Shown one piece after another: positions 14,544 through 63,539 of a DNA stretch of 64,000 nucleotides. Source of the DNA: a virus; IMG/VR virus record IMGVR_UViG_3300030331_006142, positions 1 to 64,000 of that record, one strand, 5' to 3'. A program made the translations under genes and the position numbers. The notes beneath the pieces were generated by a model. The model saw only the letters and a list, made by a program, of their open reading frames with translations, was not told where the DNA came from and searched no databases. Numbering within the stretch: the stretch's first letter is position 1; each line of letters begins with the position of its first letter.

Positions 14544-14548
14544 ATATT

Positions 14549-16184: not shown

Positions 16185-16242
16185 TTCTAATATTATCCTT
16201 TTTTTATTTTTCTTGTTTTTTCACACATCATCTGCCTAGAGG

Positions 16243-17229
16243 CTATATAAAATCATCTTGCTCATAATCTTTAGTAGCTGAATGGCCAATGAGACTGTAA
16301 TATTCCGATGAATGAATGTTCCCGGGGAGAAAAGGCCTCTTCGTGGTGATATTTTTTTCTGTAAACACTTCTCCTTCTCTAATCTCCTTTAAAGCCACTA
16401 CTGACCTCATGGCCTTCGAGAAGGGCTCTTCGCTCGACGTTAAGCACTTATTGGAGTCCGCACACATCTTCTCTGCAATCCTTATTTGTTGTATCATGTT
16501 TTTTAAGCTTTCTGGCTCTAAAGCGAATGGATGGTCAGGGCCCGGAAGTCTCCTTGAAATAGTATAGTGCTTCTCGATACAGGTTGCCCCTTTTGCTACA
16601 GCTAGTGCTGGTGCGAGAATACCTTCTGTATGGTCCGACAACCCAAAGTTGGTGCCTGGATATTGCTTTATAAGTGAATCGATTCTATTAAGGTTTATAT
16701 CGCCATCAGGCGTTGGATACGCGTTGTTGCAGTGTAGAATAGTGATTTCTGGGCTTGTCTGTTCCAATGAAATCCAGTTAATTATATTTTGAACTGATTC
16801 TAAATTACTGCCAATTCCTGCGGACGCAATAATTGGCAAGCCAGCTTTTGCTACCATCCTCACAAATCTTGGGTCGGTCGATTCAAAGCCAGCAATTTTC
16901 AGCCTTTTCACCCCTAAAGAGACCAATTCTTCCACTGCCTTTTCATCAAAGGGAGTTGACATAAACTCAATACCAATATCATCACAAAATAATTTTAAAT
17001 CTTTTTGCCACTCTCTTGGCAGCTCTATGTCTTTGATTAGCTTATTGATGTTTTTATATCCAGCAAAGTCTGGAGTGTTCTTAGAATAAAGAGTATCTGA
17101 AGAATATGTTTGAAACTTTACTGCATCTGCTCCTGATTCTTTGGCTATTCTAATCAGCTCAAAAGCCTGTTCTTTATTTTTGTTATGGTTGGCGCCAGCC
17201 TCAGCAATAATAAAAGTTTTGTTATTCAT
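16243..17229 (-). CDS. neuB: N-acetylneuraminate/pseudaminate-type synthase (NeuB/PseI family)
   Basis: 328 residues. Condenses phosphoenolpyruvate with a hexosamine to a nine-carbon nonulosonic acid in the cytoplasm. The TIM-barrel start IIAEAGANHNK, the substrate loop AVKFQTYSSDTLYSK, GIEFMSTPFD, and GLSDHTEG then IEKHYTISR are classic NeuB motifs. The C-terminus (SVVALKEIREGEVFTEKN) is a short SAF/antifreeze-like domain completing the usual length. Whether the product is sialic, legionaminic or pseudaminic acid cannot be read from sequence alone; the nearby 4,6-dehydratase favours the last two. Confidence 0.88.
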   Translation of the reverse strand: MNNKTFIIAEAGANHNKNKEQAFELIRIAKESGADAVKFQTYSSDTLYSKNTPDFAGYKNINKLIKDIELPREWQKDLKLFCDDIGIEFMSTPFDEKAVEELVSLGVKRLKIAGFESTDPRFVRMVAKAGLPIIASAGIGSNLESVQNIINWISLEQTSPEITILHCNNAYPTPDGDINLNRIDSLIKQYPGTNFGLSDHTEGILAPALAVAKGATCIEKHYTISRRLPGPDHPFALEPESLKNMIQQIRIAEKMCADSNKCLTSSEEPFSKAMRSVVALKEIREGEVFTEKNITTKRPFLPGNIHSSEYYSLIGHSATKDYEQDDFI

Positions 17230-17265
17230 GGATAAAGTATATCACTTAATTGTTGCAAAATCAAG

Positions 17266-18096
17266 CTAATTTAAATACTTTTTTTGCCTTTTTGATAAAC
17301 TTTTGTAGTGCTTTCCCTGTCTATTGACTGAATTTACATCCTCATCATACTCAAAAGTTGGCAACACGCCATTGACAATATGAGGTGCGGTAGACTTAAT
17401 ATAACAGCAATGAGTAGAAATTCTGTAACCTTGGGAAACTTTGCCACCGCGGTGGAAGCCATTTGCATCAAAGAAGCAAATGGTGCCTTCTGGGCCTTCG
17501 AAGTTCACGACATCTGAGTATGGTATTTTCATGGTTGCCTCAAGGTCTAAGTAGCCGTGTGGCGCTTGTCCAACATTTGGCCAAATGGAGTCATTTTTTT
17601 TACCGGATGAACTATTCTTAACATACCACAAGGCGCCATTTGATGTTCTAACATCGTTATAATAGACAAATATTTTTAATATTTTCGTATCTTCTGTGTC
17701 TCTGTGCCAATTTTGAGAATTTGAAGGTGGCATCGGGTTTTCTGGATGATAAAAAGCTAAGCAATTTCTGATTCTCGCTTCATTAGTTTCTAGATAAGAC
17801 TCTGCGACTTCTAGAAATTTGTTATCTAAATAAAACTGTATTAAAGATGAATTTTCAAGACTAAGACCTTCTCCGAGCAATTGCTTGTTTTGAAATTCAA
17901 AGTATTTTGTTCTATTGACTAGCGGCCTTCCTTCTTTTAAAAGTTCTGCCTGGTGGACTATCTCAGGTCTGGTTGTCCATGACCTAAAATCATTTGCCGT
18001 TTTCTCATAATTAACATTTCGGCCCAAAAATTCTTTTACATTTGTAATTGAAAAGCCGGTGTTTTTTAAATCTTCAACTATCTTGGAAGTATCCAC
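17266..18096 (-). CDS. PhyH-like Fe(II)/2-oxoglutarate dioxygenase
   Basis: 276 residues from a GTG with GAGG 8 nt upstream. The Fe-binding pattern is visible: NWHRDTEDTK gives H-x-D near the middle and the distal His lies in FDANGFHRGGKVSQGYR, whose Arg would bind 2-oxoglutarate. This is the phytanoyl-CoA dioxygenase-like family, common in marine phages. In this operon it may hydroxylate a sugar or lipid precursor. Substrate unknown. Confidence 0.75.
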   Translation of the reverse strand: MDTSKIVEDLKNTGFSITNVKEFLGRNVNYEKTANDFRSWTTRPEIVHQAELLKEGRPLVNRTKYFEFQNKQLLGEGLSLENSSLIQFYLDNKFLEVAESYLETNEARIRNCLAFYHPENPMPPSNSQNWHRDTEDTKILKIFVYYNDVRTSNGALWYVKNSSSGKKNDSIWPNVGQAPHGYLDLEATMKIPYSDVVNFEGPEGTICFFDANGFHRGGKVSQGYRISTHCCYIKSTAPHIVNGVLPTFEYDEDVNSVNRQGKHYKSLSKRQKKYLN

Positions 18097-18097
18097 T

Positions 18098-19063
18098 TTA
18101 CACCTCTTTTGAGCCCCTCCTAATTAAAGAGAGGATACTTTCAACATTTTCATCGATGTGAAGGGCCGAGTTAAAATGTGGGCCATTGTATTGTTCTTGG
18201 TGTTTGTTGTGCTCTCTTTTAGAGTATTGTGGCCTTATACTTAAAAGGCTCTCTTCATTGACGCTATATGTGAATGGGAGCTCCGTCTCTGCTAACATAT
18301 CCTCATGAAGCTTTTCACCTGGGCGTAAGCCTACTATATTGTATTCAAATTGAGAACCATGAAGGCGCTCTATTGCTTTAAGTATTGTCTTCATGTTATA
18401 TGATTTTATCTGCGGCACAAACACTTCTCCGCCTTCAGAGTTCTCCACCGCAGCCAAAACAGAGTCTACTGCATCCTCTAGGGTAAATAAAAATCTCGTC
18501 ATTTCCAGTGAAGTAACATTAATGCTTTTGTTTTCCGATAAAAGGCCCATCCAAAGAGGTATGAATGAACCCCTCGATGCGACCACATTTCCATATCGAA
18601 CAGAAGAAAAAATAGTTGAAGGAGAATCATAGTCGTAGTTCGTAAAAAGACGCTCCGCTATAAACTTAGAAGACCCATAAACATTAACTGGTTTGCAAGC
18701 CTTATCAGTTGAAATAAGTGTGCACTTTTTAACATCTGTCATAAGTGCCGCTCTGGCTACGTTCTCAGAACCATGTATATTTGTTTTTATACACTCATCT
18801 GGATAATATTCCATATCATCCACTCTTTTTAGAGCTGCTGTGTGTATTACAAAATCCGGCCTTTCTTTCTTCATGGAAACCAGAAGTTTATCAAAATCTC
18901 TAATGTCACCAATTATTTTTTTTACGGTGTTGTCTGTGCCATATATTAAAGCCTGCTTTCCTTCGTCTCTAGAATATACTACAGTTTCATGACCCTGTTT
19001 TTGTAATCTCTTTACCAGGGCCTTACCCAGAGAGCCAGTCCCTCCTGTTATAAAATATTTCAT
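18098..19063 (-). CDS. UDP-sugar 4,6-dehydratase (PseB/FlaA1/CapD type)
   Basis: 321 residues, short-chain dehydrogenase fold. NAD-binding TGGTGSLG at residues 7-14; LISTDKACKPVNVYGSSK carries the D-K and Y-x-x-x-K catalytic set of inverting 4,6-dehydratases; FSSVRYGNVVASRGSFIPLW and GLRPGEKLHEDML are family markers. It should convert UDP-GlcNAc to a 4-keto-6-deoxy sugar, the first step toward pseudaminic or related acids. Coupled by ATGA to the downstream-listed glycosyltransferase gene and by short spacing to the dioxygenase. Confidence 0.88.
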   Translation of the reverse strand: MKYFITGGTGSLGKALVKRLQKQGHETVVYSRDEGKQALIYGTDNTVKKIIGDIRDFDKLLVSMKKERPDFVIHTAALKRVDDMEYYPDECIKTNIHGSENVARAALMTDVKKCTLISTDKACKPVNVYGSSKFIAERLFTNYDYDSPSTIFSSVRYGNVVASRGSFIPLWMGLLSENKSINVTSLEMTRFLFTLEDAVDSVLAAVENSEGGEVFVPQIKSYNMKTILKAIERLHGSQFEYNIVGLRPGEKLHEDMLAETELPFTYSVNEESLLSIRPQYSKREHNKHQEQYNGPHFNSALHIDENVESILSLIRRGSKEV

Positions 19064-21090
19064 ATCTCCACTCTTTCAATTTCACTTGGCGATTCGTTTA
19101 AACGAGAAACAATTTTAATATCTGTTCCCTTTTCTTTAATCCACCTATAAAAGCTTAACATCGAATCATTGCACATGTCAACTTCTTTTTTGAGAGTTTT
19201 TACAGATTCGTGGTTTTTTGCCACCTCATTATGGTCAATAAAATCCTCGTTTTTGAATTCGGAATCTTTTTTGTTATAAAAGTGCTGCTGATTTGCTTCT
19301 CCATCTATTAGTTTGTTATCCCAACCGATTGTTGTAACCTCGGAGAAACCTAAGTGTTGCATAGTGTAGAAGACTACTTCATACTCTATTCCAGGCCCAT
19401 ACGGCCTTAGTAGTTGCTGCTTGTCAAGTGTCCACTCATCAAAATTAAGCTTTGCAGCTATAGAGTTTCGAAAGTCTCTTTCTTGTATAAAAAATTTCAA
19501 GTCACACGGACCAAGGCGATAAGGCACCGATGAAGCTTCAAATATAATTGGATTATGTTCTGAGTAATCATACTCTTTGAAGTTTGCACAATTATAAAAA
19601 TGAATATCCGTGTCTTCCTTATACAGCTCAAAAGACTGCTTTATCGCAAGACAAACACTGTCTTTCAATAGGTTTTTTATTTTTTTAGGGTCGTGTTCTG
19701 TAAGTGTTGGCCCACAAGACAACAAATAAGCCTTTTCCCCCTTAAAAAGGTCTTTCAAAAATTCTAACTTACCAGATTGAGACAGGTCACCAGACACTAC
19801 GCTTTTTGCAAACTTAGCTCTCTCTTTTGCTGACTCTATGCTTAAAGCCTGAGCTCTCAGCTCCTGTACCGTTCTTTCTCCTACTTTTTCTTTTTTCCCA
19901 AATATGCTTTCAATATATTTTTCTTTTATACTTTCTAATTTGTGAGACTCTAAAATCTCTCTCTTCAGTGTGTCAGCCCAAGACTTATATTTTTTATAAT
20001 TGCTGTATACATTTTCAAGCTGCTTTTTGTAGCTGTCCTCCTTCACGTAGGCCCACTGGCTTTCTGCAGGAATTATGTTTTCCCATGCTGCGTTCGCTTG
20101 AATCTGCTTTAGTTCATATCCAACTTTTGCAAAAAGTTGCTTCTCTTTTCCTTTCTTGTCTTTTATACTTAAAAAATCCAAGTGTCCTGACCACTCAGTT
20201 GCGATAACCGGTAAACCAGAATATGCCGCTTCAAATATTGGCAAACCATAACCTTCACCATGAGTCGTAGACACATAAGCCTTGATTTTTGGGTGTGTGT
20301 ACAGAGAGTGAATTTCACTCTCAGTTAAGTTTCCATGAAGTAAATAAATTTTACATTTTCTGTCTACTTCTGGAATCATTGTTTTGAGTGTGTTCAAGGT
20401 GTCGTTTCTATCAATAATCGTCCCTTTTGCTTTTCCTGTCTTTACAACAAGTCCAACGTTGGGGTTGTCTTTATACTGTGAAACAAAGCCCCTTATTGTT
20501 GTCTCTAGATTTTTTCTTGGGCCCATAAGGGCAATAGTCAAAAAATTAAAATCAGTATCAAAATCAATATTTAATCCGGCGCCGGCGACGTGCTTTACAG
20601 GATAGGGAATAACATCTATTGGTGAGTTGCAATTAAGAATAGATTTTGTTTGATTTTCCTTGTTGAATATTTCATATCCCGTATGCGCATAGGTATCTTT
20701 AGAGTGGCTTGAGGGAACAATAATTTTATCAATACCCTGATGGGTTTTTGCCAGCCAGACTGCATCGACCCTGTCAGTTTCTATTCCCGCAGTCACACAC
20801 ACCGAGTAGGGCGCCTTCTTTTCAAACTCATTTGGTATGCCGACATGTATTTGCACATCAAATTCTGGATTGGATTGCTCAGACTGGCAATGACTCATGT
20901 AACTTTGCAAATTTTGTATTGCCCTCGAGACATCTTCTTTTGGTTTAAGTTGGGAAGTGGCCCCCCATGGAAGTGGGTTTATCATAATATCTAAATTTTC
21001 AATGTCTTTAATTGATTGAAAAACTAAACGAGAATGTTCTCCATATCCGGATTGAGTCAAAATTGGTGCCTCTAAAAGTATTCTCTTCAT
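19060..21090 (-). CDS. GT4 glycosyltransferase fused to a MAF-like domain
   Basis: 676 residues, two domains. Residues about 1-390 are a GT-B glycosyltransferase of family 4: GYGEHSRLVFQSI at the start, MGPRKNLETTIRGF, and HGEGYGLPIFEAAYSGLPVIA with the nucleotide-sugar-binding Glu pair. Residues about 440-676 form a second domain starting KAYLLSCGPTLTEHD and later QHLGFSEVTTIGWDN, the same MAF/DUF115-like layout as the 14549-15400 protein. A double transferase acting on two sugars is inferred. ATGA overlap with the upstream GT4 gene. Confidence 0.75.
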   Translation of the reverse strand: MKRILLEAPILTQSGYGEHSRLVFQSIKDIENLDIMINPLPWGATSQLKPKEDVSRAIQNLQSYMSHCQSEQSNPEFDVQIHVGIPNEFEKKAPYSVCVTAGIETDRVDAVWLAKTHQGIDKIIVPSSHSKDTYAHTGYEIFNKENQTKSILNCNSPIDVIPYPVKHVAGAGLNIDFDTDFNFLTIALMGPRKNLETTIRGFVSQYKDNPNVGLVVKTGKAKGTIIDRNDTLNTLKTMIPEVDRKCKIYLLHGNLTESEIHSLYTHPKIKAYVSTTHGEGYGLPIFEAAYSGLPVIATEWSGHLDFLSIKDKKGKEKQLFAKVGYELKQIQANAAWENIIPAESQWAYVKEDSYKKQLENVYSNYKKYKSWADTLKREILESHKLESIKEKYIESIFGKKEKVGERTVQELRAQALSIESAKERAKFAKSVVSGDLSQSGKLEFLKDLFKGEKAYLLSCGPTLTEHDPKKIKNLLKDSVCLAIKQSFELYKEDTDIHFYNCANFKEYDYSEHNPIIFEASSVPYRLGPCDLKFFIQERDFRNSIAAKLNFDEWTLDKQQLLRPYGPGIEYEVVFYTMQHLGFSEVTTIGWDNKLIDGEANQQHFYNKKDSEFKNEDFIDHNEVAKNHESVKTLKKEVDMCNDSMLSFYRWIKEKGTDIKIVSRLNESPSEIERVEI

Positions 21091-22334
21091 AGCTTAAACA
21101 TCTCCCAGTTTTTATAATTTTTTCTATTATCCCAAGAAGACATTTCTTCAAAAACACTCTTAAATGTCTGATACCAAAGACCAGCATATTTAGCCATGCT
21201 GTAATTTTCTAAGACGTGCTGCCTTCCTGCTGCTCCCAGTTTTTCTCTTTCACTTTTCGACATATTGTAAAATTCTACAAGAGAGGCAACAAAGTCATCC
21301 TTTGAAAGCCTGTCTTCATAAATATAAGGAACATCCTGCGAGCCAATAACTGCTTTTGAAGCAGGTTCTATCCCTATGCCAAACCAACTACTGCCGTCTG
21401 TTACCTGCTCCTGCAAGCCGCCTGTCATATTTACAATTATCGGAGTCTCGCAAGCCAAAGATTCTAAAGTGGAAAGCCCAAAACCCTCAGCATCAGAAAT
21501 ATTTATTGTGCAATCTGCAAGGTTGTATAGTGCTGCCAATTCTTCAGGCGGCATCTTAACAACGGATAGCACAACTTGTCCATCCTCGAGTCCAAGCTCC
21601 TTGACTATCGCCTCTAAATCCTGTCCATTAGGGTCTTTTGGTTCTGTGTGCATTATTAATGTTGCCTTGTCATGGCCTATTTGGTCTAGGAATTCTTTAA
21701 ACCAAAAAATCAAAGTACCAGACTGTTTTCTTCTAGCATTTCTATTGTTCCAAAAAAAGACCATCTTACCTTGAGACCCAGCTGTATCTCTCAGGGGTGC
21801 TATCTTTTCTTCTTTCATTTTCTTGAACACGTTAGTATCTACAGTATGTGGTATTCTTACGCACTTAACTCCTGGAGACACAGTTCTCACAATATCGTCT
21901 GTAACTTTGCTGATTGTGCACACCACATCGTTTGAATCATAAAAAGACTTATTGAACTTTGGATAAGGGTAATTATCCCAAACATGATAGTAAATCATCG
22001 GAACGTTAGGACGGATTTCATCCTCCATTCCCCAAAGCCAAATATAAAATCTTGGGTCAGTCATGAACCACAATACGTCTGGCTTATAAGTCTCTAGTGC
22101 TTCTCGTACTATTTTTGGGTTACCATAGCCGTCAACTGGATGTATAATCCAATCATCAGGGTATGGGTCTACTTTTATTGGTCGATAATCCCTGTGTTTT
22201 AGGGCGCCGGCGAGACAGACAAAAGAAAACTCTCCTGTTCTCAACATAGCCTCTATCATATATTTCGTTTGAGTGCCAACTCCGGAAGGGGCGAGCGGAC
22301 TGTCTGCTATTACTAATATTTTCTTTTTCGTCAT
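21087..22334 (-). CDS. GT4 glycosyltransferase
   Basis: 415 residues, starting at MTKKKILVIADSPLAPSGVG in an ATGA overlap with the nuclease gene; an in-frame upstream start is possible but would overlap 42 nt. GT-B fold: N-terminal SGVGTQTKYMIEAM acceptor loop, donor-side FFWNNRNARRKQSG, and SDAEGFGLSTLESLACETPIIV with the E-x7-E motif. Would transfer a nucleotide sugar. First gene of the glycosylation island. Confidence 0.85.
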   Translation of the reverse strand: MTKKKILVIADSPLAPSGVGTQTKYMIEAMLRTGEFSFVCLAGALKHRDYRPIKVDPYPDDWIIHPVDGYGNPKIVREALETYKPDVLWFMTDPRFYIWLWGMEDEIRPNVPMIYYHVWDNYPYPKFNKSFYDSNDVVCTISKVTDDIVRTVSPGVKCVRIPHTVDTNVFKKMKEEKIAPLRDTAGSQGKMVFFWNNRNARRKQSGTLIFWFKEFLDQIGHDKATLIMHTEPKDPNGQDLEAIVKELGLEDGQVVLSVVKMPPEELAALYNLADCTINISDAEGFGLSTLESLACETPIIVNMTGGLQEQVTDGSSWFGIGIEPASKAVIGSQDVPYIYEDRLSKDDFVASLVEFYNMSKSEREKLGAAGRQHVLENYSMAKYAGLWYQTFKSVFEEMSSWDNRKNYKNWEMFKL

Positions 22335-23197
22335 TTGCAATACTCTGTTTTGTAAAACTTGCAATATTTGCAAGAAAGTCTATTTTTAATTTTCATCCCT
22401 TTTTCAATATTTATAACAGATTTTTCCAAAAGACTTAAGCAGTTATTTGTTTTCTTTTCTCCAGAGGTGACTCTGAATATCTCTACGTTGTTTTTCTTTG
22501 CAGTCCTCTTTAGCAAAGCAAAATAAGTTTCAATACTTTCTGTCGGGATACTGTGTTTTTTTGAGAAAAAATGTTTGTACATTGTCAATTGATAGTTGAC
22601 TATTTTATCTGTTTTTTTAGAAATATTCCAGCCCCAGCTGCAGGTTTTCCAGTCAATAATGTGATATTTTTCATCAGGAGTTTTTATGACCAAATCAATG
22701 AAGCCTTTAAACTTTCTTCCGTAGGATTGAAATTCGTCTATATTTTCCATCAACTCTTCTTCAATGGATATTACTTCAAAGTTTCCAAAATATGATTTCA
22801 ACTCTTTCAAAGCATTGTTACATATTGGTAACGCCTGTTCTCTCATCTCACGAACTAGGTCTTTGTTGATGTTGTGACCCTCTTCTTTTAGAATTTTTAA
22901 TTCCCTAAGAAAAGATTGCTGAAAGACTTCATATGCATCTATTGAGTGCTCTGGTACTTTCTTTTCGCACGCTTCATGAATTGCTGTTCCGAATGCAGTA
23001 TACTCATTGCCTGAGAAGTACGGAAATTTATCTATATAAATAAGCTTGTGACGATAAGGGCATTCTGTCCAGTTTTTAAATTCAGAATAACTAATCTTTT
23101 TTTGTTGAGAGGTTTGACATTCTTTTTCTGATGGAATTGGTTGAGGCTGGTTTTTTTCTGGTTCTTGTTTGTTTTTGCTTTGGTTTTTTGTCTTCAA
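22331..23197 (-). CDS. Cas4/RecB-type PD-(D/E)XK nuclease
   Basis: 288 residues. Core motifs: SYSEFKNWTECPYRHKL (Cys followed by P-Y-R as in RecB/AddB/Cas4), GTAIHEACE (catalytic His), GFIDLVIKTPDEKYHIIDWKTCSW (the D...D-x-K site) and a C-terminal CKYCKFYKTEYCK, which with the first Cys could hold an iron-sulfur cluster. Likely a 5'-3' exonuclease for recombination or host DNA breakdown. The start is uncertain: the TTG at 23197 overlaps the previous gene by 107 nt and has no good ribosome site. Confidence 0.75.
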   Translation of the reverse strand: MKTKNQSKNKQEPEKNQPQPIPSEKECQTSQQKKISYSEFKNWTECPYRHKLIYIDKFPYFSGNEYTAFGTAIHEACEKKVPEHSIDAYEVFQQSFLRELKILKEEGHNINKDLVREMREQALPICNNALKELKSYFGNFEVISIEEELMENIDEFQSYGRKFKGFIDLVIKTPDEKYHIIDWKTCSWGWNISKKTDKIVNYQLTMYKHFFSKKHSIPTESIETYFALLKRTAKKNNVEIFRVTSGEKKTNNCLSLLEKSVINIEKGMKIKNRLSCKYCKFYKTEYCK

Positions 23198-28318: not shown

Positions 28319-28395
28319 TGGTGGGCCCACCTGGACTCGAACCAGGAACCGACGGTTTATGAGACCGGCGCTCTAACCTATTGAGCTATAGGCCC
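28319..28395 (-). tRNA. tRNA-Ile2 (anticodon CAU), CCA encoded
   Basis: 77 nt cloverleaf: acceptor GGGCCTA/TGGGCCC, D-stem GCTC/GAGC, anticodon loop CTCATAA, T-arm CCTGG-TTCGAGT-CCAGG, discriminator A, encoded CCA. There is a C-U mismatch at 27-43. The CAU anticodon could be Met, but C4-G69 and C5-G68 match the reported TilS recognition pairs of tRNA-Ile2, the D-arm resembles E. coli tRNA-Ile2, and a TilS gene starts 625 nt upstream. After lysidine modification it would read AUA. Confidence 0.85.
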
Positions 28396-32605: not shown

Positions 32606-33520
32606 TTAAAGGGAGTCTCTAGTTTTAAGCACCTCTTCTCTACTTCCAGCTTTATAAAAGCCCGCGGGGGCTTTAGTTATCTCCTCAAAGCGTGGCACAT
32701 GTTGGCCTTTTGGTAAACCTGTCTTATTAATTATTATAATTTTATCTAAATGTACCTCTCCAATCATTGCAACTTCTGCGTAGTCTGATACTGCATCAAC
32801 ATGCTTAGTATCCTCAGCTATTTTGGTAATTTGTATTCCCGGATTAGAGCCTCCAGCTCTTGTTACATATAAAACCTCTATTTGACCTGCTCCTTGTCCC
32901 TTCGTCCCATGCTGAGCATAATATGAAGCTTCATTGAATTCTGTCGACCATGATGAGGTCTTTTTGGTGCCGCCGCGTGGGACAAACTTAGACGGCGGCT
33001 TAATTACATGAACTCCAGGACCTTTTTGAAGCAAAAAATCTATAGGCAACGAGGGAAACAATTCTTTAAGCTTTTTGGCCGAAACGTGCATTCCTCTGAA
33101 TACTTTCCCGCGAGCCTTATATTTAGGCATATGTTTTGTTATTAAAGCTGCTGACCGGGAACTCATCGGTATATTAGACCTTATGTGTCTTCTTAGTTCT
33201 ATAGCCAAAGTGTCCATTTGTTTATTAATCGATTTGAGACTAGATAGCGTCGCGCGAGCAAAATTAGCCTTGCCGGTAACTCTTCCAGCTTTGCTAGATT
33301 TAGACAGCCTTGCGGCCCTGTTAGCGTGCCTGGCTACAACCAAAGGGCCTCCGAAAAGCTCAAGGCCGCTGCTAGGTATGTTTGGGTCGGAATCAACAAG
33401 GCTAAGCCATATTTTTTTATACCACGGAGCTTTGCGCCAGCGTCGGCTTCTGGCTAAGGTCTCAGCGCTCAGGCTCTCAACTTGTAAAAATCTACGCCAA
33501 TTTTCCATTATAAGCTTCAT
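32606..33520 (-). CDS. Putative ADP-ribosyltransferase with type 1 capsid-targeting-like tag
   Basis: 304 residues from MKLIMENWRRFL at 33520. The C-terminal half matches the R-S-E ADP-ribosyltransferase layout: Arg142 in KVFRGMHVSA, SSWST at 189-193, and Glu249 in SDYAEVAMIGEVHL. T4 Alt, a packaged ADP-ribosyltransferase, also has a cleaved capsid-targeting leader, so this is the best candidate here for an injected host-takeover enzyme. The first Glu of the usual E-x-E is replaced by Tyr, so activity is uncertain. Ends upstream of the lysozyme-like gene; a 97-nt gap without a gene follows. Confidence 0.65.
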   Translation of the reverse strand: MKLIMENWRRFLQVESLSAETLARSRRWRKAPWYKKIWLSLVDSDPNIPSSGLELFGGPLVVARHANRAARLSKSSKAGRVTGKANFARATLSSLKSINKQMDTLAIELRRHIRSNIPMSSRSAALITKHMPKYKARGKVFRGMHVSAKKLKELFPSLPIDFLLQKGPGVHVIKPPSKFVPRGGTKKTSSWSTEFNEASYYAQHGTKGQGAGQIEVLYVTRAGGSNPGIQITKIAEDTKHVDAVSDYAEVAMIGEVHLDKIIIINKTGLPKGQHVPRFEEITKAPAGFYKAGSREEVLKTRDSL

Positions 33521-33524
33521 AACC

Positions 33525-34073
33525 CTACATATTTCCTTGGTACATACCCAACCGGGCAGTTGTACTGGTGCGCCTTTTTCTCTTTGCGAGTCTGAGCTGC
33601 TTTCTCGCATCGAAAAATTTTCGATGACCCACATGGATTTTTTCTTTCGAGCGCACTTTTATTTTTCCGTCTTTAGAGTCATAAATAATTGAAAAAACAC
33701 CATCTGGGTCTTTATACATTACACTCGTTTTTAATTTCTTATCTCCCTTGCAATTACTATATTTAGAATTTTTCCCACTGTCATACGCGGTTGGCGAGCA
33801 GGGAACACATGTGCGCGTTATATTGCAGCGTTTTCCAGGTGGACACCACTTTTCATTATCAAACTCCCCTACTTGAGGGCCGCATTCTGGGGTTTTATAT
33901 CCTCTCGCTGCACAGGGCGATGCCTTTCCATATACTGGTTCTGTTTGTGTCATAACGCTGATTCCCGCTTTCTTGCAGGCATCTATTTGACCTTGGTCTA
34001 ACCTAGGGTCAAGCATAGGATGCTTTTCTTCTTCTTTTAAGAATTTTCTCCAGTTTTCCATTATAAGTTTCAT
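33525..34073 (-). CDS. Cys-rich cargo protein, tag type 1
   Basis: 182 residues. Tag MKLIMENWRKFLKEEEKHP, then a Cys-rich domain with ACKKAG, SPCAARGYKTPECGP, WCPPGKRCNITRTCVPC and SNCKGDKK (nine or so Cys), and a basic C-terminus (KQLRLAKRKRRTSTT). The Cys spacing suggests a disulfide-bonded or metal-bound fold. No family recognised. Begins in an overlap with the preceding tag gene. Confidence 0.65.
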   Translation of the reverse strand: MKLIMENWRKFLKEEEKHPMLDPRLDQGQIDACKKAGISVMTQTEPVYGKASPCAARGYKTPECGPQVGEFDNEKWCPPGKRCNITRTCVPCSPTAYDSGKNSKYSNCKGDKKLKTSVMYKDPDGVFSIIYDSKDGKIKVRSKEKIHVGHRKFFDARKQLRLAKRKRRTSTTARLGMYQGNM

Positions 34074-34327
34074 TTTTTAATAACACTTATTGCTCGTTTA
34101 ACTGTACTAATTAAATGTTTACGAGATATGCCAATCGGTTGTCCGGCACCTTTCGGGGTTAAAATATCTATAATATCATTAAATATTTTACTAGCATCGG
34201 CAGAATTAATCTTACCGGAGGCCTCTTTTTTTATTATTCTTATAAGTTCCGTGCCTACATTTTTACTTGAGATGTAATCTTGCTGTTCTGTTAAGAACGG
34301 CTTCCAATTTTCCATTATAAGTTTCAT
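34070..34327 (-). CDS. Small cargo protein, tag type 1 (85 aa)
   Basis: Starts MKLIMENWKPFLTEQQDY at 34327 with AAGGAG 10 nt upstream; a longer frame upstream lacks support. The rest is a helical basic protein (GTELIRIIKKEASGKINSAD and SRKHLISTVKRAISVIKK). Preceded by a decayed copy of the tmRNA-end/leader repeat. Function unknown. Confidence 0.65.
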   Translation of the reverse strand: MKLIMENWKPFLTEQQDYISSKNVGTELIRIIKKEASGKINSADASKIFNDIIDILTPKGAGQPIGISRKHLISTVKRAISVIKK

Positions 34328-34351
34328 TGTATAAATCTCCTTATAATAAAT

Positions 34352-34391
34352 AGCCTTTAAGATAAGAAAAGTTGAAAGGAATGTCGGACTG
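34352..34391 (-). repeat. Decayed copy of the tmRNA-3'-end/leader repeat
   Basis: Aligns to the block at 36466-36505 mainly through TAAGATAAGAAAAGTTG on the plus strand; the tmRNA-like part is only vaguely kept. It precedes the 34327 tag gene and follows a stop codon, like the better copies. Oldest-looking of the four. Confidence 0.45.
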
Positions 34392-35048
34392 TTATTTTTG
34401 TCCAATAGAATTTAATAATTCTGAATCTAGGTTCATCCAGTTTAGGCTCGTTGAAGTAAAGAAGTTTTCTATTCTGTCTGGTTTAACAGCCCAGCTTGAA
34501 TCTGGATGCCAATCTTCAACAAGTGAACAAGGGGCAATTTTTAAATTTGCCACTATATACATTGAATTCTCATCTAATCCTACGCTAATGTTACCTGCCT
34601 TAAGGGCACGGCGAGACTCTGTGTGAAGAAAGACCTTGAAAGCATTTACGCCATAGGTTGCTACGATTTGGGTTATTTTGTCTTCTTTTTTTGGATTCTT
34701 TTTAATTAAGGCTTCATAGGATGCGAATCCGTTATCCAGAACTCCGGTAGTAGTAAGTCCATTGTTTTTTAAAAAATTAAATCTTATATCTTTTTTACTA
34801 CCACCAAATGAAACTGAATGGAGTACACTTTTAACATCATTGCTTACATGCGTCCCCTGATTGGGCGTTTTTACAAATGTGCAATTATATTTTTTTTGCA
34901 TTGCAATCGATGCAGACCTCACACTTTTTTTGCATGAATCTAAGAAATTCGAGGCGATGGCCATCGTCAACTGGACATCCTCAGGGTCTCTCTTAGTGAA
35001 CTCCACTTCGTTTACAAATTCTCGCCAGTTTTCCATTATAAGCTTCAT
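34392..35048 (-). CDS. Cargo protein, tag type 1 (218 aa)
   Basis: Tag MKLIMENWREFVNEVEFTKR, then a soluble alpha/beta domain: DVQLTMAIASNFLDSCKKSV, NQGTHVSNDVKSVLHSVSFG and AGNISVGLDENSMYIVANLK. No family recognised. Immediately preceded by a near-perfect copy of the tmRNA-end/leader repeat (35059-35098). No ribosome site before the ATG. Confidence 0.65.
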   Translation of the reverse strand: MKLIMENWREFVNEVEFTKRDPEDVQLTMAIASNFLDSCKKSVRSASIAMQKKYNCTFVKTPNQGTHVSNDVKSVLHSVSFGGSKKDIRFNFLKNNGLTTTGVLDNGFASYEALIKKNPKKEDKITQIVATYGVNAFKVFLHTESRRALKAGNISVGLDENSMYIVANLKIAPCSLVEDWHPDSSWAVKPDRIENFFTSTSLNWMNLDSELLNSIGQK

Positions 35049-35058
35049 AATATTAAAT

Positions 35059-35098
35059 AGTCTTCAAAATAAAAAAAGTTGGTGGAGGTGGCGGGAGT
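35059..35098 (-). repeat. Copy of tmRNA 3' end plus leader
   Basis: 40 bp, 38 identical to 36466-36505. On the minus strand it reads tmRNA acceptor/T-arm half (CTCCCGCCACCTCCACCA) followed by AACTTTTTTTATTTTGAAGA and leads into the 35048 tag gene. Lies right after the stop of 35100-35585. Confidence 0.8.
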
Positions 35099-35099
35099 A

Positions 35100-35585
35100 T
35101 TATTCAAACTTGATTGTGCGTACCCAGGCGTCATCTTCAGGTTTGGCATAGAGCGTGGAACCAAAGGCGTCGAGGATTTCAGATTTTTTCAAAGCAGGCA
35201 AGACTATCGGTTGTTTAATTTCACTGAATGCCATAACAATATGTGGTATATATTCTCTTAACTTGTTTTTGACTCTTCCTAAGCGCGGGGAATAATGACC
35301 TCGACCTGTCGTATTTCCATGGTCGAATGTGGACTCTATGCGGCCGGCAGCTTCAACGAAAGCCAAAATCTTAAGCTGTACTTCTTCTCGCATATCGGCA
35401 ACCTGGTCTATTTGTCCCATTCTGGCATAACCATGGACATCGGCCAGGCCAGCTGCAACGCGTTCCAATTTTTTGACAGGGTCTGATTTATCGATGGTTG
35501 AATGTACTGCGCTGACCGCAGTTGATAAAGGAGATTCTTTTAATAGTTTTCTCCAGTTTTCCATTATAAGCTTCATTTCAGACAT
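35100..35585 (-). CDS. Cargo protein, tag type 1 (161 aa)
   Basis: Starts MSEMKLIMENWRKLLKES with AAGGAA 9 nt before the ATG; the tag itself begins at residue 4. Helical domain (KLERVAAGLADVHGYARMGQ, REEVQLKILAFVEAAGRIE), then YSPRLGRVKNKLREYIPHIV. No family recognised. Flanked on both sides by tmRNA-end/leader copies, like a cassette. Confidence 0.65.
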   Translation of the reverse strand: MSEMKLIMENWRKLLKESPLSTAVSAVHSTIDKSDPVKKLERVAAGLADVHGYARMGQIDQVADMREEVQLKILAFVEAAGRIESTFDHGNTTGRGHYSPRLGRVKNKLREYIPHIVMAFSEIKQPIVLPALKKSEILDAFGSTLYAKPEDDAWVRTIKFE

Positions 35586-36465: not shown

Positions 36466-36797
<332 letters not shown>

Positions 36798-58269: not shown

Positions 58270-58487
58270 TGTGCATCTCCTCCGCCTGTGCCGGCGCCCT
58301 GACAAACTTCATAACAATGCTCATGCACAAAATAATGACAACTTTCGCCACAGCCAGCATCTGTCTTGTCACAAAGCATTTCAACATCCTCTTCGCATTG
58401 CATTACTTTTCGGCACGATTCACCTTCTTCACTAGGGCAACCGCATAATGCTAAAGCAAGAGATAAAATCAACATTCTTTTAATCAT
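58266..58487 (-). CDS. Cys-rich predicted lipoprotein (73 aa)
   Basis: Signal RMLILSLALALCGC with lipobox; mature part has about ten Cys (GESCRKVMQCEEDVEMLCDK, GCGESCHYFVHEHCYEVC). Envelope-directed, disulfide-rich. GAGG before the ATG; overlaps the upstream gene by 8 nt. Confidence 0.7.
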   Translation of the reverse strand: MIKRMLILSLALALCGCPSEEGESCRKVMQCEEDVEMLCDKTDAGCGESCHYFVHEHCYEVCQGAGTGGGDAQ

Positions 58488-58680
58488 TAATCACCTCATA
58501 TCGCCGATGCGGGTTGAGCTGCGAACGATAAACCTCGCTAACTCCACAAGGGCAAACAATCTTTGCTTTATACGAATCCTCGTTGGTCCTTGGCACAAGC
58601 ACCATTGCAACATTACATCGCACAGCGCCTGGTTCGCCAGCACAAGAACCCAATGGATTAACTAAGTCGCCTCGTTTCAC
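58480..58680 (-). CDS. MKxGDLV-family protein outside the main array
   Basis: 66 residues from a GTG in a GTGA overlap. MKRGDLVNPLGSCAGEPGAV, KAKIVCPCGVSEVYRSQL. Same N-terminal GDLV barrel pattern as the array at 61-63.5 kb. Confidence 0.65.
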   Translation of the reverse strand: MKRGDLVNPLGSCAGEPGAVRCNVAMVLVPRTNEDSYKAKIVCPCGVSEVYRSQLNPHRRYEVIND

Positions 58681-60959: not shown

Positions 60960-60988
60960 AGTATAGCAGCTAAACTAATGAAAGTCAA
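60960..60988 (-). promoter_or_regulatory. Sigma70 promoter
   Basis: TTGACT, 17-bp spacer, TATACT; overlaps the end of the last array gene. Confidence 0.7.
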
Positions 60989-61179
60989 GAACTTTTTACA
61001 ATTTTTAAGTCGTAATCCCAAACATTATTTCCAATGGTTCCGTCGCGCCACAAGACTCTGTACTCATTATTGTTATATCTGTGTATCAAAAAACGAGTAC
61101 TAAATCCAAGAATGATTCCATACCTTTCTGCACCGTGGCGACTTGGATGATTGTCTTTAACTAAATCACCGACTTTCAC
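60985..61179 (-). CDS. MKVGDLV array gene 1
   Basis: 64 residues from GTG: MKVGDLVKDNHPSRHGAERY, IILGFSTRFLIHRYNNNEYR. Last gene of the array; its tail (LKIVKSS) differs from the ISESR consensus because no array gene follows. SH3/KOW-like small barrel predicted. 14-nt overlap with the previous member. Confidence 0.7.
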   Translation of the reverse strand: MKVGDLVKDNHPSRHGAERYGIILGFSTRFLIHRYNNNEYRVLWRDGTIGNNVWDYDLKIVKSS

Positions 61180-61339
61180 TGATTCTCCTGATAACGCTCA
61201 CATGATAAGAGCACCGAATCGGGCTGTTGTCGTCACAGAACTGGACAAGATAACACCTGTTTTGTTCCGCCTTAGCAACGATTATCCCAATACGATTAAC
61301 ATAAGAGTTATCGACCCTCACTAAATCACCGACTTTCAC
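61166..61339 (-). CDS. MKVGDLV array gene 2
   Basis: 57 residues: MKVGDLVRVDNSYVNRIGII, VAKAEQNRCYLVQFCDDNSP, ends RRISESR. GTG start; the tail encodes GGAG and the next GTG. Confidence 0.65.
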   Translation of the reverse strand: MKVGDLVRVDNSYVNRIGIIVAKAEQNRCYLVQFCDDNSPIRCSYHVSVIRRISESR

Positions 61340-61502
61340 TGATTAACTCCAAGGAAAAAGTGTAGTGATGAAAGACCTCACTGCCCCTATCGAGCCAAAT
61401 AACATCGCATATGTCGACGTCAACATACGTCTCGACTACAATACCCACTATGCGGTGCTTTTTTGGTATATCAATATGGTGGACCAAATCACCGACTTTC
61501 AC
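61326..61502 (-). CDS. MKVGDLV array gene 3
   Basis: 58 residues: MKVGDLVHHIDIPKKHRIVG, IVVETYVDVDICDVIWLDRG, ends LELISESR. 14-nt overlaps on both sides. Confidence 0.65.
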   Translation of the reverse strand: MKVGDLVHHIDIPKKHRIVGIVVETYVDVDICDVIWLDRGSEVFHHYTFSLELISESR

Positions 61503-61638
61503 TGATTAGCTCCAAGTCACATTGCTCGACGCGGAATTCCCCGTCAGGGAATAATACATAAAAACCATGCGGAACAACTTTGGTGATAACTCCAAGACCA
61601 TCCCAGCTAACCTGCTTTACCAAATCACCGACTTTCAT
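61489..61638 (-). CDS. MKVGDLV array gene 4
   Basis: 49 residues, the shortest: MKVGDLVKQVSWDGLGVITK, VVPHGFYVLFPDGEFRVEQC, ends LELISESR. ATG start in an ATGA overlap. Confidence 0.65.
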   Translation of the reverse strand: MKVGDLVKQVSWDGLGVITKVVPHGFYVLFPDGEFRVEQCDLELISESR

Positions 61639-61844
61639 TCTGGGTGCTTCCTCAACCATCTAAGCAAGCGAACGTCAATAGTTCTGGGGCTTGTCTCCCC
61701 AAGTAACAGAACCTTGTGGTTCTGTATGACCACACCGTCGTCACGATGAATGAAAGCCTCACCCAGATAGACAGCCACTTTATCATTGATATCGCGCGTG
61801 TGCCCGTTAATACGGTCGAACTTTACTAAATCACCGACTTTCAT
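61635..61844 (-). CDS. MKVGDLV array gene 5
   Basis: 69 residues: MKVGDLVKFDRINGHTRDIN, KVAVYLGEAFIHRDDGVVIQ. Tail (LRWLRKHPE) departs from the consensus and uses a 4-nt ATGA junction. Confidence 0.7.
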   Translation of the reverse strand: MKVGDLVKFDRINGHTRDINDKVAVYLGEAFIHRDDGVVIQNHKVLLLGETSPRTIDVRLLRWLRKHPE

Positions 61845-62031
61845 TTACCAACTCCAATGTTTGCATCCTATACGTGCGCTGACCATACTTTGTAGCCACA
61901 TGAACATCGGGATTGGGGTTCCATTTAATCTCCTCTGAGTCTTTGAAACTTTCATTCCAACCTAACGACACCACAATCCCGGTCAGGGCCGGGTACGTAC
62001 CGTACACCTTGACCAAGTCACCGATTTTCAC
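61831..62031 (-). CDS. MKVGDLV array gene 6
   Basis: 66 residues from GTG at 62031 (GGAGG 7 nt upstream): VKIGDLVKVYGTYPALTGIV, VHVATKYGQRTYRMQTLELV, ends NESR. Confidence 0.65.
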   Translation of the reverse strand: MKIGDLVKVYGTYPALTGIVVSLGWNESFKDSEEIKWNPNPDVHVATKYGQRTYRMQTLELVNESR

Positions 62032-62185
62032 TGATGACCTCCAGATTCGCCGCGGGGGCATTTTCGCGTTGACCGGTATCGACAAACATTATCTTAGCAT
62101 AACTCCGATGCAAGGCAACTAATAATGCCAGTCTGCCTGAGTCCCGGCAAAGATGATTGAGTCTTACCAAATCACCGACTTTCAT
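62018..62185 (-). CDS. MKVGDLV array gene 7
   Basis: 55 residues: MKVGDLVRLNHLCRDSGRLA, LLVALHRSYAKIMFVDTGQR, ends LEVISENR. Confidence 0.65.
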   Translation of the reverse strand: MKVGDLVRLNHLCRDSGRLALLVALHRSYAKIMFVDTGQRENAPAANLEVISENR

Positions 62186-62363
62186 TGACTACAGTTAAAT
62201 CCTTTTTCCTAATTGACAACGTAGCGCCGTTATCTTTGTTCCATCTAACTACTACCAGATAATCAGCATGAGGGTCGGGGCGAATTACCAGGCCATACCA
62301 GTTCTTCCACCTGTCGTGGACTCTTCCCTCTGGGGTATATCTTACCAAGTCCCCGACTTTCAT
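62172..62363 (-). CDS. MKVGDLV array gene 8
   Basis: 63 residues: MKVGDLVRYTPEGRVHDRWK, NWYGLVIRPDPHADYLVVVR, ends DLTVVNESR. ATGA junction with the membrane microprotein upstream. Confidence 0.7.
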   Translation of the reverse strand: MKVGDLVRYTPEGRVHDRWKNWYGLVIRPDPHADYLVVVRWNKDNGATLSIRKKDLTVVNESR

Positions 62364-62437
62364 ATTATTGCCACCGATAGCATCACGGCAAATGCAATAA
62401 CTAGAATTGGAAACATTACAGCTATAATAATTTCCAT
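62360..62437 (-). CDS. Membrane microprotein (25 aa) inside the array
   Basis: MEIIIAVMFPILVIAFAVML then SVAII; ends in an ATGA overlap with array gene 8. Entirely hydrophobic. Confidence 0.5.
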   Translation of the reverse strand: MEIIIAVMFPILVIAFAVMLSVAII

Positions 62438-62450
62438 AATTGCAATCTTA

Positions 62451-62624
62451 TCATCGTCTTTCACTGATTAACTCGCAACCACTTGTGACATACCAAACAA
62501 CTTCTCCTCTGGTGTTGAGGGCTTTGAGTGTTCCACCGTTCTGATTACTATACAGAATCACACCAATATCACTACTGTTCGGTGTGCGATATATGACAAA
62601 GTCGCCAGGCTTAAATTTCACCAT
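62451..62624 (-). CDS. GDFV-type barrel protein (57 aa)
   Basis: MVKFKPGDFVIYRTPNSSDI, ends VTSGCELISERR. TAATG start at 62624. Keeps the tail consensus (ELISERR) though the next gene has changed to the microprotein, a sign of a former array junction. Confidence 0.65.
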   Translation of the reverse strand: MVKFKPGDFVIYRTPNSSDIGVILYSNQNGGTLKALNTRGEVVWYVTSGCELISERR

Positions 62625-62854
62625 TATCTCCAAATAGTCACAAAATGACCAAATTCTCTATCAAAAACCTTCACAAGGCCCTCATAATTACCCATCATCA
62701 TTACCTTACAGATAGCAGCAATCCTTTCTTCTGAGTACCCTAGTTGTCTACCAAACGTATGCACATACGCCATAAGGGCATGGGCGTTACCATCTGGTCC
62801 TGTAAGGTCAATCTCTATTGGCCTGTGTGGCATCTCTTCTTTGCTGCGAATCAT
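62624..62854 (-). CDS. Hypothetical protein (76 aa)
   Basis: ATGA overlap. MIRSKEEMPHRPIEIDLTGP, GYSEERIAAICKVMMMGNYE; helical. No family. Confidence 0.6.
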   Translation of the reverse strand: MIRSKEEMPHRPIEIDLTGPDGNAHALMAYVHTFGRQLGYSEERIAAICKVMMMGNYEGLVKVFDREFGHFVTIWR

Positions 62855-63051
62855 CTTCCAACGTGCCTCGCGGTCTGCACCGAGCCAACATACTGGTAGG
62901 CTCCCTTGTTATAAGCAGGTGCAGAGCATTTTGCTTTACGGGCCTTTTCGCGGTTGGCAGCGTGGGCGCCACAGTCAAGACAAGTTCTGTAGCCCAGTTC
63001 GAGGCGCCTTGGGTTAAAAGATTCATAACAGATAATGCAAGTAGGATTCAT
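62851..63051 (-). CDS. Zinc-ribbon protein (66 aa)
   Basis: GGAG 6 nt before the ATG. CIICYESFNPRRLELGYRTC, CLDCGAHAANREKARKAKCS, PAYNKGAYQYV: a zinc-ribbon module also known from podophage-like early proteins (memory). First gene behind the 63079 promoter. Confidence 0.65.
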   Translation of the reverse strand: MNPTCIICYESFNPRRLELGYRTCLDCGAHAANREKARKAKCSAPAYNKGAYQYVGSVQTARHVGR

Positions 63052-63078
63052 GGTTATCTCCAGATTATTACTATATAT

Positions 63079-63107
63079 AGTATATCAGCTAAGTGCCTAA
63101 AAGTCAA
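63079..63107 (-). promoter_or_regulatory. Sigma70 promoter
   Basis: TTGACT, 17-bp spacer, TATACT. Confidence 0.7.
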
Positions 63108-63358
63108 GGCTTTTTTTTAGCATATTTCAGGTCGCGACGGTCAAAGTATGATTCCCAATAATAATAATTTCCGCGTGTTGCATATTCTCGTTTCTGCGAG
63201 TGATTAAACACAGATTTACACCAAAGAATCTTGTAAGTTCCACAGAAATATGCGCCTCGAACTTCTTTGATAATTCCAACGTCACCATCTCTAATCCAGC
63301 CTGTTCTTTTTATCTTCTTACCATAAGAAGATAATGTAACCAAGTCACCGACTTTCAC
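63104..63358 (-). CDS. MKVGDLV array gene 9
   Basis: 84 residues from GTG: MKVGDLVTLSSYGKKIKRTG, DGDVGIIKEVRGAYFCGTYK. Longer C-terminus (RRDLKYAKKKP) because the next gene has its own promoter. Confidence 0.7.
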   Translation of the reverse strand: MKVGDLVTLSSYGKKIKRTGWIRDGDVGIIKEVRGAYFCGTYKILWCKSVFNHSQKREYATRGNYYYWESYFDRRDLKYAKKKP

Positions 63359-63539
63359 TGATAACCTCCGCTTGTGATTCCCAGAGTGGACCCATCAAAG
63401 TGGGGAATGTTGGAGAACGGGCATCCCATAAGACTTTGAATAGTCTCCTGCGAGATGACAGTGGGCGAGGAACTTCTGCCACGACAATACCAACTCTTTC
63501 CATCCCCCAACTCTCTTTTACCAAATCACCGACTTTCAT
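63345..63539 (-). CDS. MKVGDLV array gene 10
   Basis: 64 residues: MKVGDLVKESWGMERVGIVV, SRRRLFKVLWDARSPTFPTL, ends EVISESR. ATG with GGAG 7 nt upstream. Confidence 0.7.
   Translation of the reverse strand: MKVGDLVKESWGMERVGIVVAEVPRPLSSRRRLFKVLWDARSPTFPTLMGPLWESQAEVISESR

What the first reader, a model, noticed from the sequence alone, without database searches (positions are those of the whole stretch)
60985..63539. Tandem array of ten MKVGDLV genes with dual-use 14-nt junctions
Ten small genes share MKVGDLV (or MKIGDLV) but otherwise diverge, and seven adjacent pairs overlap by the same 14 nt, GTGAAAGTCGGTGA or an ATG/AATCGG variant. The upstream gene's last residues ([I/V][S/N]E[S/N]R) are encoded by the very bases that form the next gene's ribosome site (GGAG), start codon and MKVG codons. 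So the tails look conserved because they carry the next gene's control, and any gene can be swapped for another by recombination at the junction. This is a ready-made cassette-exchange architecture, with relatives at 58480, 59621, 60085 and 62451.
Basis: partly seen in the sequence, partly recalled or inferred. Interest (0 to 1): 0.85.

Follow-up and report, generated by a model that had tools for sequence, protein, structure and literature searches.

The report
Shuffled small-gene cassettes in marine phages
Marine relatives of phage T4 carry rows of tiny genes whose overlapping ends double as the next gene's start signal, and comparison of about 200 virus fragments shows that single genes are reshuffled and traded between viruses exactly at those overlaps, like snap-together cassettes without a dedicated cassette enzyme.

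Summary
The record (130,653 nt) is a T4-like myovirus with Gp23 capsid protein and a RecA/UvsX-type recombinase. Ten MK[V/I]GDLV genes lie at 60985-63539 (-); seven adjacent pairs overlap by the same 14 nt. A second array lies at about 72.7-73.8 kb of the record.

In 202 viral loci, 718 of 1,046 adjacent family pairs overlap by exactly 14 nt, against 1.6% of ordinary neighbours. The [SN]ESR tail disappears when no gene follows, and the last-strand Glu codon is GAG in 95% of 14-nt genes (59% in terminal genes), so the ribosome site is selected inside coding sequence. Substitution patterns show translation.

Between related viruses array genes are scrambled (order concordance 0.60, versus 0.88 for size-matched ordinary genes). 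Genes up to 100% identical have unrelated neighbours on both sides, and identity falls to background exactly at the junction. Two near-identical viruses differ by one cassette bounded by a 20-nt repeat.

Two predicted structures are small SH3/Tudor-like barrels; no Pfam or PHROGs family recurs. The crossover enzyme (UvsX is the candidate) and the proteins' function are inferred, not shown.

The parts
63345..63539 (-). array gene 1, MKVGDLV...VISESR* (64 aa)
   Evidence: 88% nt core identity to L137 7587-7781 with different neighbours
63345..63358 (-). 14-nt dual-use junction GTGAAAGTCGGTGA (genes 1/2)
63104..63358 (-). array gene 2, MKVGDLV...YAKKKP* (84 aa), last of its operon
63079..63107 (-). 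sigma70-like promoter whose -35 TTGACT (63107-63102) contains the stop codon of gene 2; -10 TATACT 63084-63079, spacer 17
   Evidence: sequence; class statistics
62451..62621 (-). diverged family member MKFKPGDFV...ISERR*
62451..62464 (-). degenerate 14-nt junction GTGAAAGACGATGA joining 62451 gene to an unrelated ORF
62360..62464 (-). 34-aa membrane-type ORF MKDDDKIAIMEIIIAVM placed at the junction
   Evidence: 85% identical homolog in L113
62172..62363 (-). array gene 3
62172..62185 (-). 14-nt junction ATGAAAGTCGGTGA (genes 3/4)
62018..62185 (-). array gene 4, ...VISENR*
62018..62031 (-). 14-nt junction GTGAAAATCGGTGA (genes 4/5)
61831..62031 (-). array gene 5, MKIGDLV...LVNESR* (GTG start at 62031)
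61831..61844 (-). 14-nt junction ATGAAAGTCGGTGA (genes 5/6)
61635..61844 (-). array gene 6 (ends without ESR; 4-nt overlap ATGA with gene 7)
   Evidence: 83-88% nt identity to L142 and L149 genes with different neighbours
61489..61638 (-). array gene 7 (49 aa)
61489..61502 (-). 14-nt junction GTGAAAGTCGGTGA (genes 7/8)
61326..61502 (-). array gene 8
   Evidence: 81% nt identity to L143 20553-20729
61326..61339 (-). 14-nt junction GTGAAAGTCGGTGA (genes 8/9)
61166..61339 (-). array gene 9
   Evidence: 95% nt identity to L143 20196-20369 with unrelated neighbours on both sides
61166..61179 (-). 14-nt junction GTGAAAGTCGGTGA (genes 9/10)
60985..61179 (-). array gene 10, last of the array; predicted SH3-like barrel
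60960..60988 (-). sigma70-like promoter whose -35 TTGACT (60988-60983) contains the stop codon of gene 10; -10 TATACT 60965-60960, spacer 17
   Evidence: sequence; class statistics
58480..58680 (-). possible outlying relative MKRGDLV (66 aa)
   Evidence: weak hits to L074 and L076 genes

Best explanation
The array is an exchangeable set of small SH3/Tudor-like barrel proteins carried by a large group of uncultivated marine T4-like phages. Each cassette runs from one start codon to the next. The roughly 33-nt junction (consensus TTGGAGGTNATCARTGAAAGTCGGTGAYTTRGT) does four jobs: last beta-strand and overprinted SESR tail of the upstream protein, Shine-Dalgarno site, start codon, and first residues (MKVGDLV) of the downstream protein. 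Because the junctions share this sequence, homologous or microhomology recombination between two of them adds, removes or swaps whole genes while keeping both reading frames and translation initiation intact; over time this scrambles the array and spreads single genes between viruses. Shown here: the architecture, selection on the ribosome site and on the proteins, scrambled order, single-gene exchange with breakpoints at the junction, and single-cassette gain or loss between near-identical viruses. Inferred: that the phage's own UvsX/gp32-type pathway makes the crossovers, and that the proteins are a changeable repertoire of small binding proteins, most likely host-takeover or counter-defence factors (about 35% for that functional part).
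For: 14-nt overlap in 718 of 1,046 family pairs vs 49 of 3,029 ordinary pairs. Tail in 356/433 genes with an ORF at -14 vs 6/356 without. GAG codon 95% vs 59% (terminal genes) vs 46% (core). Order concordance 0.60 (bootstrap CI 0.51-0.72) vs 0.88 for small non-family genes (0.81-0.93). 127 of 273 high-identity ortholog pairs have different neighbours on both sides, with nucleotide identity dropping to background just outside -12..+21. Single-cassette indel between 20-nt repeats in L031/L035 and an extra cassette in L159 vs L158. Only 18 of 1,888 within-cluster pairs are in the same contig. RecA/UvsX-type gene in all 13 records searched, Gp23 in 11. T4 recombines at 6-10 bp microhomologies (PMC9391042). 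Two barrel models.
Against: Only two events are resolved between near-identical viruses and their direction is unknown. Exact identity between two junctions is often short (median longest run 8 nt), below the 23-34 bp quoted for Red-beta and RecA (PMC3945230). Some 14-nt neighbours are unrelated genes with only partial junction identity. The per-contig-pair sign test alone is weak (21 vs 10, p = 0.07). No function of any member is known; no cultured member was found.
Confidence: 0.75

Rival explanations
1. Ordinary phage mosaicism: genes are exchanged by illegitimate recombination anywhere, and selection keeps only joints that preserve both frames and the ribosome site. The junction is then a constraint on survivors, not a recombination site.
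For: Would give the same breakpoint positions. Exact identity between junctions is often short. Other gene pairs in these phages are also exchanged at gene borders.
Against: Rearrangement is far more frequent than for equally small non-family genes. The nucleotide-resolved indel ends exactly in a perfect 20-nt repeat. T4-type recombination needs only 6-10 bp.
Confidence: 0.18
2. Ancient tandem duplication with divergence in place: the 14-nt overlap is a fossil of the duplicated unit, kept by translational coupling, and gene order is inherited.
For: Members share start, tail and fold; near-identical viruses are nearly collinear.
Against: Order is scrambled between related viruses. Close relatives of a gene are almost never in the same virus (18 of 1,888 pairs) and adjacent members are not more alike. 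Genes with 83-100% nt identity lie between unrelated neighbours. Duplication may still have founded the family.
Confidence: 0.04
3. A dedicated site-specific system (integron-like integrase, invertase or diversity-generating element) acts on the junction.
For: Recurrent short conserved site and cassette-like units.
Against: The junction has an obvious translational explanation for every conserved base; array genes stay on one strand; no dedicated recombinase was seen next to the arrays, though none was searched for by profile; arrays occur in many places.
Confidence: 0.02
4. The frames are not translated and the repeats are DNA or RNA elements.
For: The frames are short and match no family in Pfam or PHROGs.
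Against: Third-position and synonymous excess in 233 ungapped ortholog pairs; consistent lengths of 50-80 aa; confident barrel models; ribosome-site codon selection.
Confidence: 0.01

Closest known systems
Start-Associated Sequences (SAS) of cluster K mycobacteriophages (PMC3203893)
   Same: A short conserved sequence with ribosome-site features just upstream of many different genes in related phages; same-strand, repeated per genome.
   Different: SAS is 13 bp, asymmetric, 11-19 copies per genome as described there, in front of different gene families; it is not described there as coding for the tail of the upstream gene and the start of the downstream gene, nor tied to one protein family in overlapping arrays.
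Modular mosaicism of lambdoid and other temperate phages by relaxed homologous recombination (PMC3945230, PMC2327257)
   Same: Exchange of small segments at short stretches of similarity by phage recombinases.
   Different: Lambdoid mosaicism keeps gene order (position in the map is conserved); here order is scrambled, single tiny genes move, and the similarity is one universal dual-coding border. Few mosaics were found among virulent phages in that study; these are T4-like.
Microhomology-driven amplification and deletion in laboratory T4 (PMC9391042)
   Same: T4-type recombination at short repeats changes copy number of a small counter-defence gene (tifA).
   Different: The microhomologies there are accidental; here a conserved repeat lies at every gene border.
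Integron gene-cassette arrays (from general knowledge)
   Same: Works like one: array of small exchangeable genes from a large shared pool, one direction, cassette gain, loss and reordering.
   Different: No attC-like site or integrase was seen; the border is coding sequence and ribosome site; cassettes are one protein family.
YorP (phage SPbeta, PDB 2heq), HspQ (5ycq), Tudor/PWWP/KOW small barrels
   Same: Best fold matches of two predicted members; small five-strand barrel.
   Different: About 20% sequence identity and E of about 0.01; no shared function can be claimed.

Membership tests
T4-like myovirus (carrier) | Gp23-type major capsid protein | tested here: met
   PF07068 over cut-off in G000 and 10 of 12 relatives
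T4-like myovirus (carrier) | UvsX/RecA-type recombinase | tested here: met
   PF00154 over cut-off in G000 (105335-106135) and all 12 relatives; UvsX versus other RecA not resolved
Phage mosaicism with conserved boundary sequence | Identity changes abruptly at a shared short sequence | tested here: met
Phage mosaicism with conserved boundary sequence | Gene order conserved while modules are exchanged | tested here: not met
   order concordance 0.60
SAS-type start-associated repeat | Conserved sequence at gene starts with ribosome-site function | tested here: met
   consensus; GAG codon selection; translation function itself not tested
SAS-type start-associated repeat | The 13-bp SAS sequence GGGATAGGAGCCC upstream of the start codon | tested here: not met
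   junction consensus TTGGAGGTNATCARTGAAAGTCGGTGA is different and extends into the gene
Integron cassette array | attC-type recombination site between cassettes | tested here: not met
   the border is overlapping coding sequence with no intergenic space
Integron cassette array | Linked tyrosine integrase (IntI) | not tested
   no profile search for an integrase was run
SH3/Tudor-like small barrel | Five-strand barrel fold | tested here: met
   two AlphaFold2 models with pLDDT 84 and Foldseek matches at E about 0.01; predicted only
Known Pfam/PHROGs families | Significant profile match | tested here: not met
   54 diverse members scanned; no family recurs

The most novel reading that the evidence does not exclude
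An enzyme-free cassette system: in a widespread group of marine T4-like phages the coding sequence itself (end of one protein, ribosome site, start of the next) has been selected as a universal recombination adaptor. Single genes of a very large pool of small barrel proteins (859 sequence clusters seen) can be gained, lost, reordered and traded without breaking expression, as a rapidly changing arsenal against hosts.
Probability: 0.5. Interest if true: 0.87.

Novelty: new variant of a known kind. Interest (0 to 1): 0.76.

Why it matters
It gives a concrete, testable answer to how phages exchange single genes without breaking neighbours: each border is the same dual-coding sequence, so recombination between any two borders is automatically in frame and translatable. 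It identifies a very large pool of small barrel proteins, absent from the searched family libraries, that is under rapid exchange in marine viruses. That pattern is typical of host-takeover or counter-defence factors, so the family is a good place to look for new ones. It also contrasts with classical phage mosaicism, in which gene order is kept.

Tried and rejected
Pfam and PHROGs scans of the ten genes and of 54 diverse members found no recurring family.

Nucleotide and protein searches of 50,697 phage records found no array homolog; a 39-nt junction query returned only chance-level partial matches.

A scan of prokaryote species genomes gave 61 stretches, mostly single and probably chance occurrences; the few with several copies (L217, L252, L268, L272) were not followed up, so no host can be named.

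Recent tandem duplication as the source of the array was rejected. A fixed ancestral order was rejected. Translation artefact was rejected.

A first gene-order statistic was weakened by poor detection of short homologs and was replaced by order concordance among shared orthologs with a size-matched control.

Only one clean nucleotide-resolved indel was found automatically among near-identical loci, plus one more after reading the sequence. Polarising the L031/L035 event failed.

Literature searches for a published description of these arrays found none in the open library.
Full report
OBSERVATION. The ten genes and seven 14-nt overlaps are present as described. The overlap RTGAAARTCGGTGA reads M-K-V/I-G-D in the downstream frame and S/N-E-S/N-R-stop in the upstream frame. 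The record holding the window is a 130,653-nt virus contig with a second array at about 72.7-73.8 kb. It carries a Gp23-type capsid gene and a RecA/UvsX-type recombinase, so it is a T4-like myovirus.

EXTENT. I added 80 loci chosen independently of the array, by a backbone ATPase gene of the same record. With a simple gene caller (codon usage plus ribosome site, with a score bonus for the family start) on all 202 loci, 1,630 strict family genes were found. Of 1,046 adjacent family pairs, 718 overlap by exactly 14 nt and 130 by 4 nt; ordinary neighbours overlap by 14 nt in 49 of 3,029 cases. The base-by-base consensus is TGGAGGTNATCARTGAAAGTCGGTGA from -12 to +14. Two relatives of the same group (G008, G012) have no match to the array pattern, so arrays look like an accessory feature.

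DUAL USE. If the tail were needed by the protein it should persist in genes with no overlapping successor. It does not: xExR-type tails occur in 356 of 433 genes with an ORF at -14 and in 6 of 356 without. The Glu codon that supplies GGAG is GAG in 95% of 14-nt genes, 59% of terminal genes and 46% of ordinary Glu codons in the same genes. So the ribosome site is selected inside the coding sequence.

TRANSLATED. In 233 ungapped ortholog pairs, substitutions at codon positions 1, 2 and 3 number 638, 425 and 1,731, with 1,362 synonymous and 498 nonsynonymous single changes.

SHUFFLING. For related virus pairs I compared the relative order of shared orthologs within 6 kb. Array genes: 431 concordant, 286 discordant (0.60; random is 0.5). 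Size-matched non-family genes: 1,396 to 198 (0.88). Large genes: 0.94. Bootstrapping over contigs gives 0.51-0.72 against 0.81-0.93. With identity of at least 80%, 12 of 48 array pairs are discordant against 1 of 131. A plain sign test per contig pair is weaker (21 vs 10, p = 0.07). An example is L100 against L058: flanking backbone genes are mostly collinear at 28-75% identity, while array genes up to 96% identical are reordered.

SINGLE-GENE EXCHANGE AT THE JUNCTION. Among 273 ortholog pairs with core nucleotide identity of at least 75%, 127 have different neighbours on both sides. Aligned on the start codon, identity is 0.22-0.32 (background) up to -13, rises in the junction, and is about 0.8-0.9 through the gene; the 3' side is the mirror image. 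The window's own genes behave this way: 61166-61339 is 95% identical to a gene of L143/L074 with unrelated sequence on both sides; likewise 61326-61502, 61635-61844 and 63345-63539. Gene 63345-63539 lies, in L137, next to the ortholog of a gene that belongs to the second array of this record, so genes also move between arrays. Same-virus members of a sequence cluster are almost absent (18 of 1,888 within-cluster pairs; 859 clusters, 616 singletons), which argues against local duplication and for a shared pool.

RECENT EVENTS. L031 and L035 are 99.5-100% identical over 11 kb and differ by one array gene: a 176-nt indel between two copies of ATGAAAGTCGGTGATTTGGT, with perfect identity around it. 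L159 carries one extra MEVGDLV gene, bordered by 14-nt junctions, that L158 lacks. Direction is unknown in both.

UNRELATED GENES AT THE SAME JUNCTION. 14-nt overlaps also connect array genes to other genes: 57 of 587 family-to-other neighbours (9.7%, against 1.6% background) and 122 of 611 other-to-family. Some of these 'others' are diverged family members. True outsiders include a DNA methylase (PF01555), a GIY-YIG nuclease (PF01541), a gp32-like single-strand binding protein (PF08804) and several unnamed small genes. In the window, 62451 joins a small membrane-type ORF this way.

MECHANISM (inferred). Laboratory T4 remodels its genome by recombination at 6-10 bp microhomologies (PMC9391042). 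Published minimal segments are 31-34 bp for RecA and 23-27 for Red-beta (PMC3945230). Longest exact runs between two junctions are 8 nt at the median in general, 16 in the window's array, and up to 25 there. A T4-type pathway therefore fits; a strict RecA-type requirement would fit only a minority of pairs. Whether recombination targets the junction, or selection merely keeps in-register joints, is the main open question.

PROTEIN. Two members from different clusters give the same five-strand barrel (pLDDT 84 each). Best PDB matches are YorP of phage SPbeta for one and HspQ for the other, followed by Tudor, PWWP and KOW barrels, all at E of about 0.01 or weaker. Viral structure matches include small unnamed phage proteins. 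This fold class commonly binds proteins or nucleic acids (general knowledge). A changeable arsenal of binding proteins is the best functional guess, about 35%.

VERDICT. A real, widespread and apparently undescribed architecture that works like a cassette system without a dedicated enzyme. It is a new variant of phage mosaicism with conserved boundary sequences: the boundary feature is met, but conserved gene order is not.

Noticed in passing
window 63079-63107 and 60960-60988 (-); same class in other loci: A second dual use: the last gene of an array often ends with its stop codon TGA inside the -35 box TTGAC of the next promoter. 60 of 190 terminal genes show TTGAC at the stop and 29 of them have a -10-like TAnnnT at the right spacing, against 0 of 602 internal genes. 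This explains tails such as KKP*, KCP*, KSS*.
   Followed up: partly
record G000 about 72.7-73.8 kb (L136 9706-10811): A second array of six MKVGDLV genes with 14-nt junctions in the same record, outside the window.
   Followed up: yes
window 33497-35576 (-): Five copies of a start sequence encoding MKLIMENW at the beginning of otherwise different proteins (none expected by chance). From memory it resembles the capsid-targeting leader of T4 internal proteins; these may be proteins packaged and injected with the DNA.
   Followed up: partly
window 11164-22373 (-): A cluster resembling surface-sugar (nonulosonic acid) biosynthesis, with NeuB (PF03102) and a cytidylyltransferase (PF02348) confirmed, plus epimerase-, aminotransferase- and glycosyltransferase-like ORFs by eye.
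   Followed up: partly
window 36487-36797 and 28319-28395 (-): A phage-encoded tmRNA (tag ANDDVENFEDFALAA) and a tRNA-Met.
   Followed up: no
L057 8073-8900: A gp32-like single-strand binding protein starts (MKVGEYDANG) in the 14-nt overlap of an array gene ending ISESR*.
   Followed up: partly
L129 3745-4050, L093, L180, L186: A 'KLVRD[KG]IPEII' gene (resembles MazG-type pyrophosphohydrolases from memory; no Pfam match) repeatedly follows array genes with a 14-nt overlap that ends in TAG instead of TGA.
   Followed up: partly
L217, L252, L268, L272 (genome contigs): Several copies of the array start pattern in contigs binned with bacterial MAGs (Deltaproteobacteria, Flavobacteriales, Methylococcaceae TMED69, WOR-3); probably phage contigs, possible host leads.
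   Followed up: no
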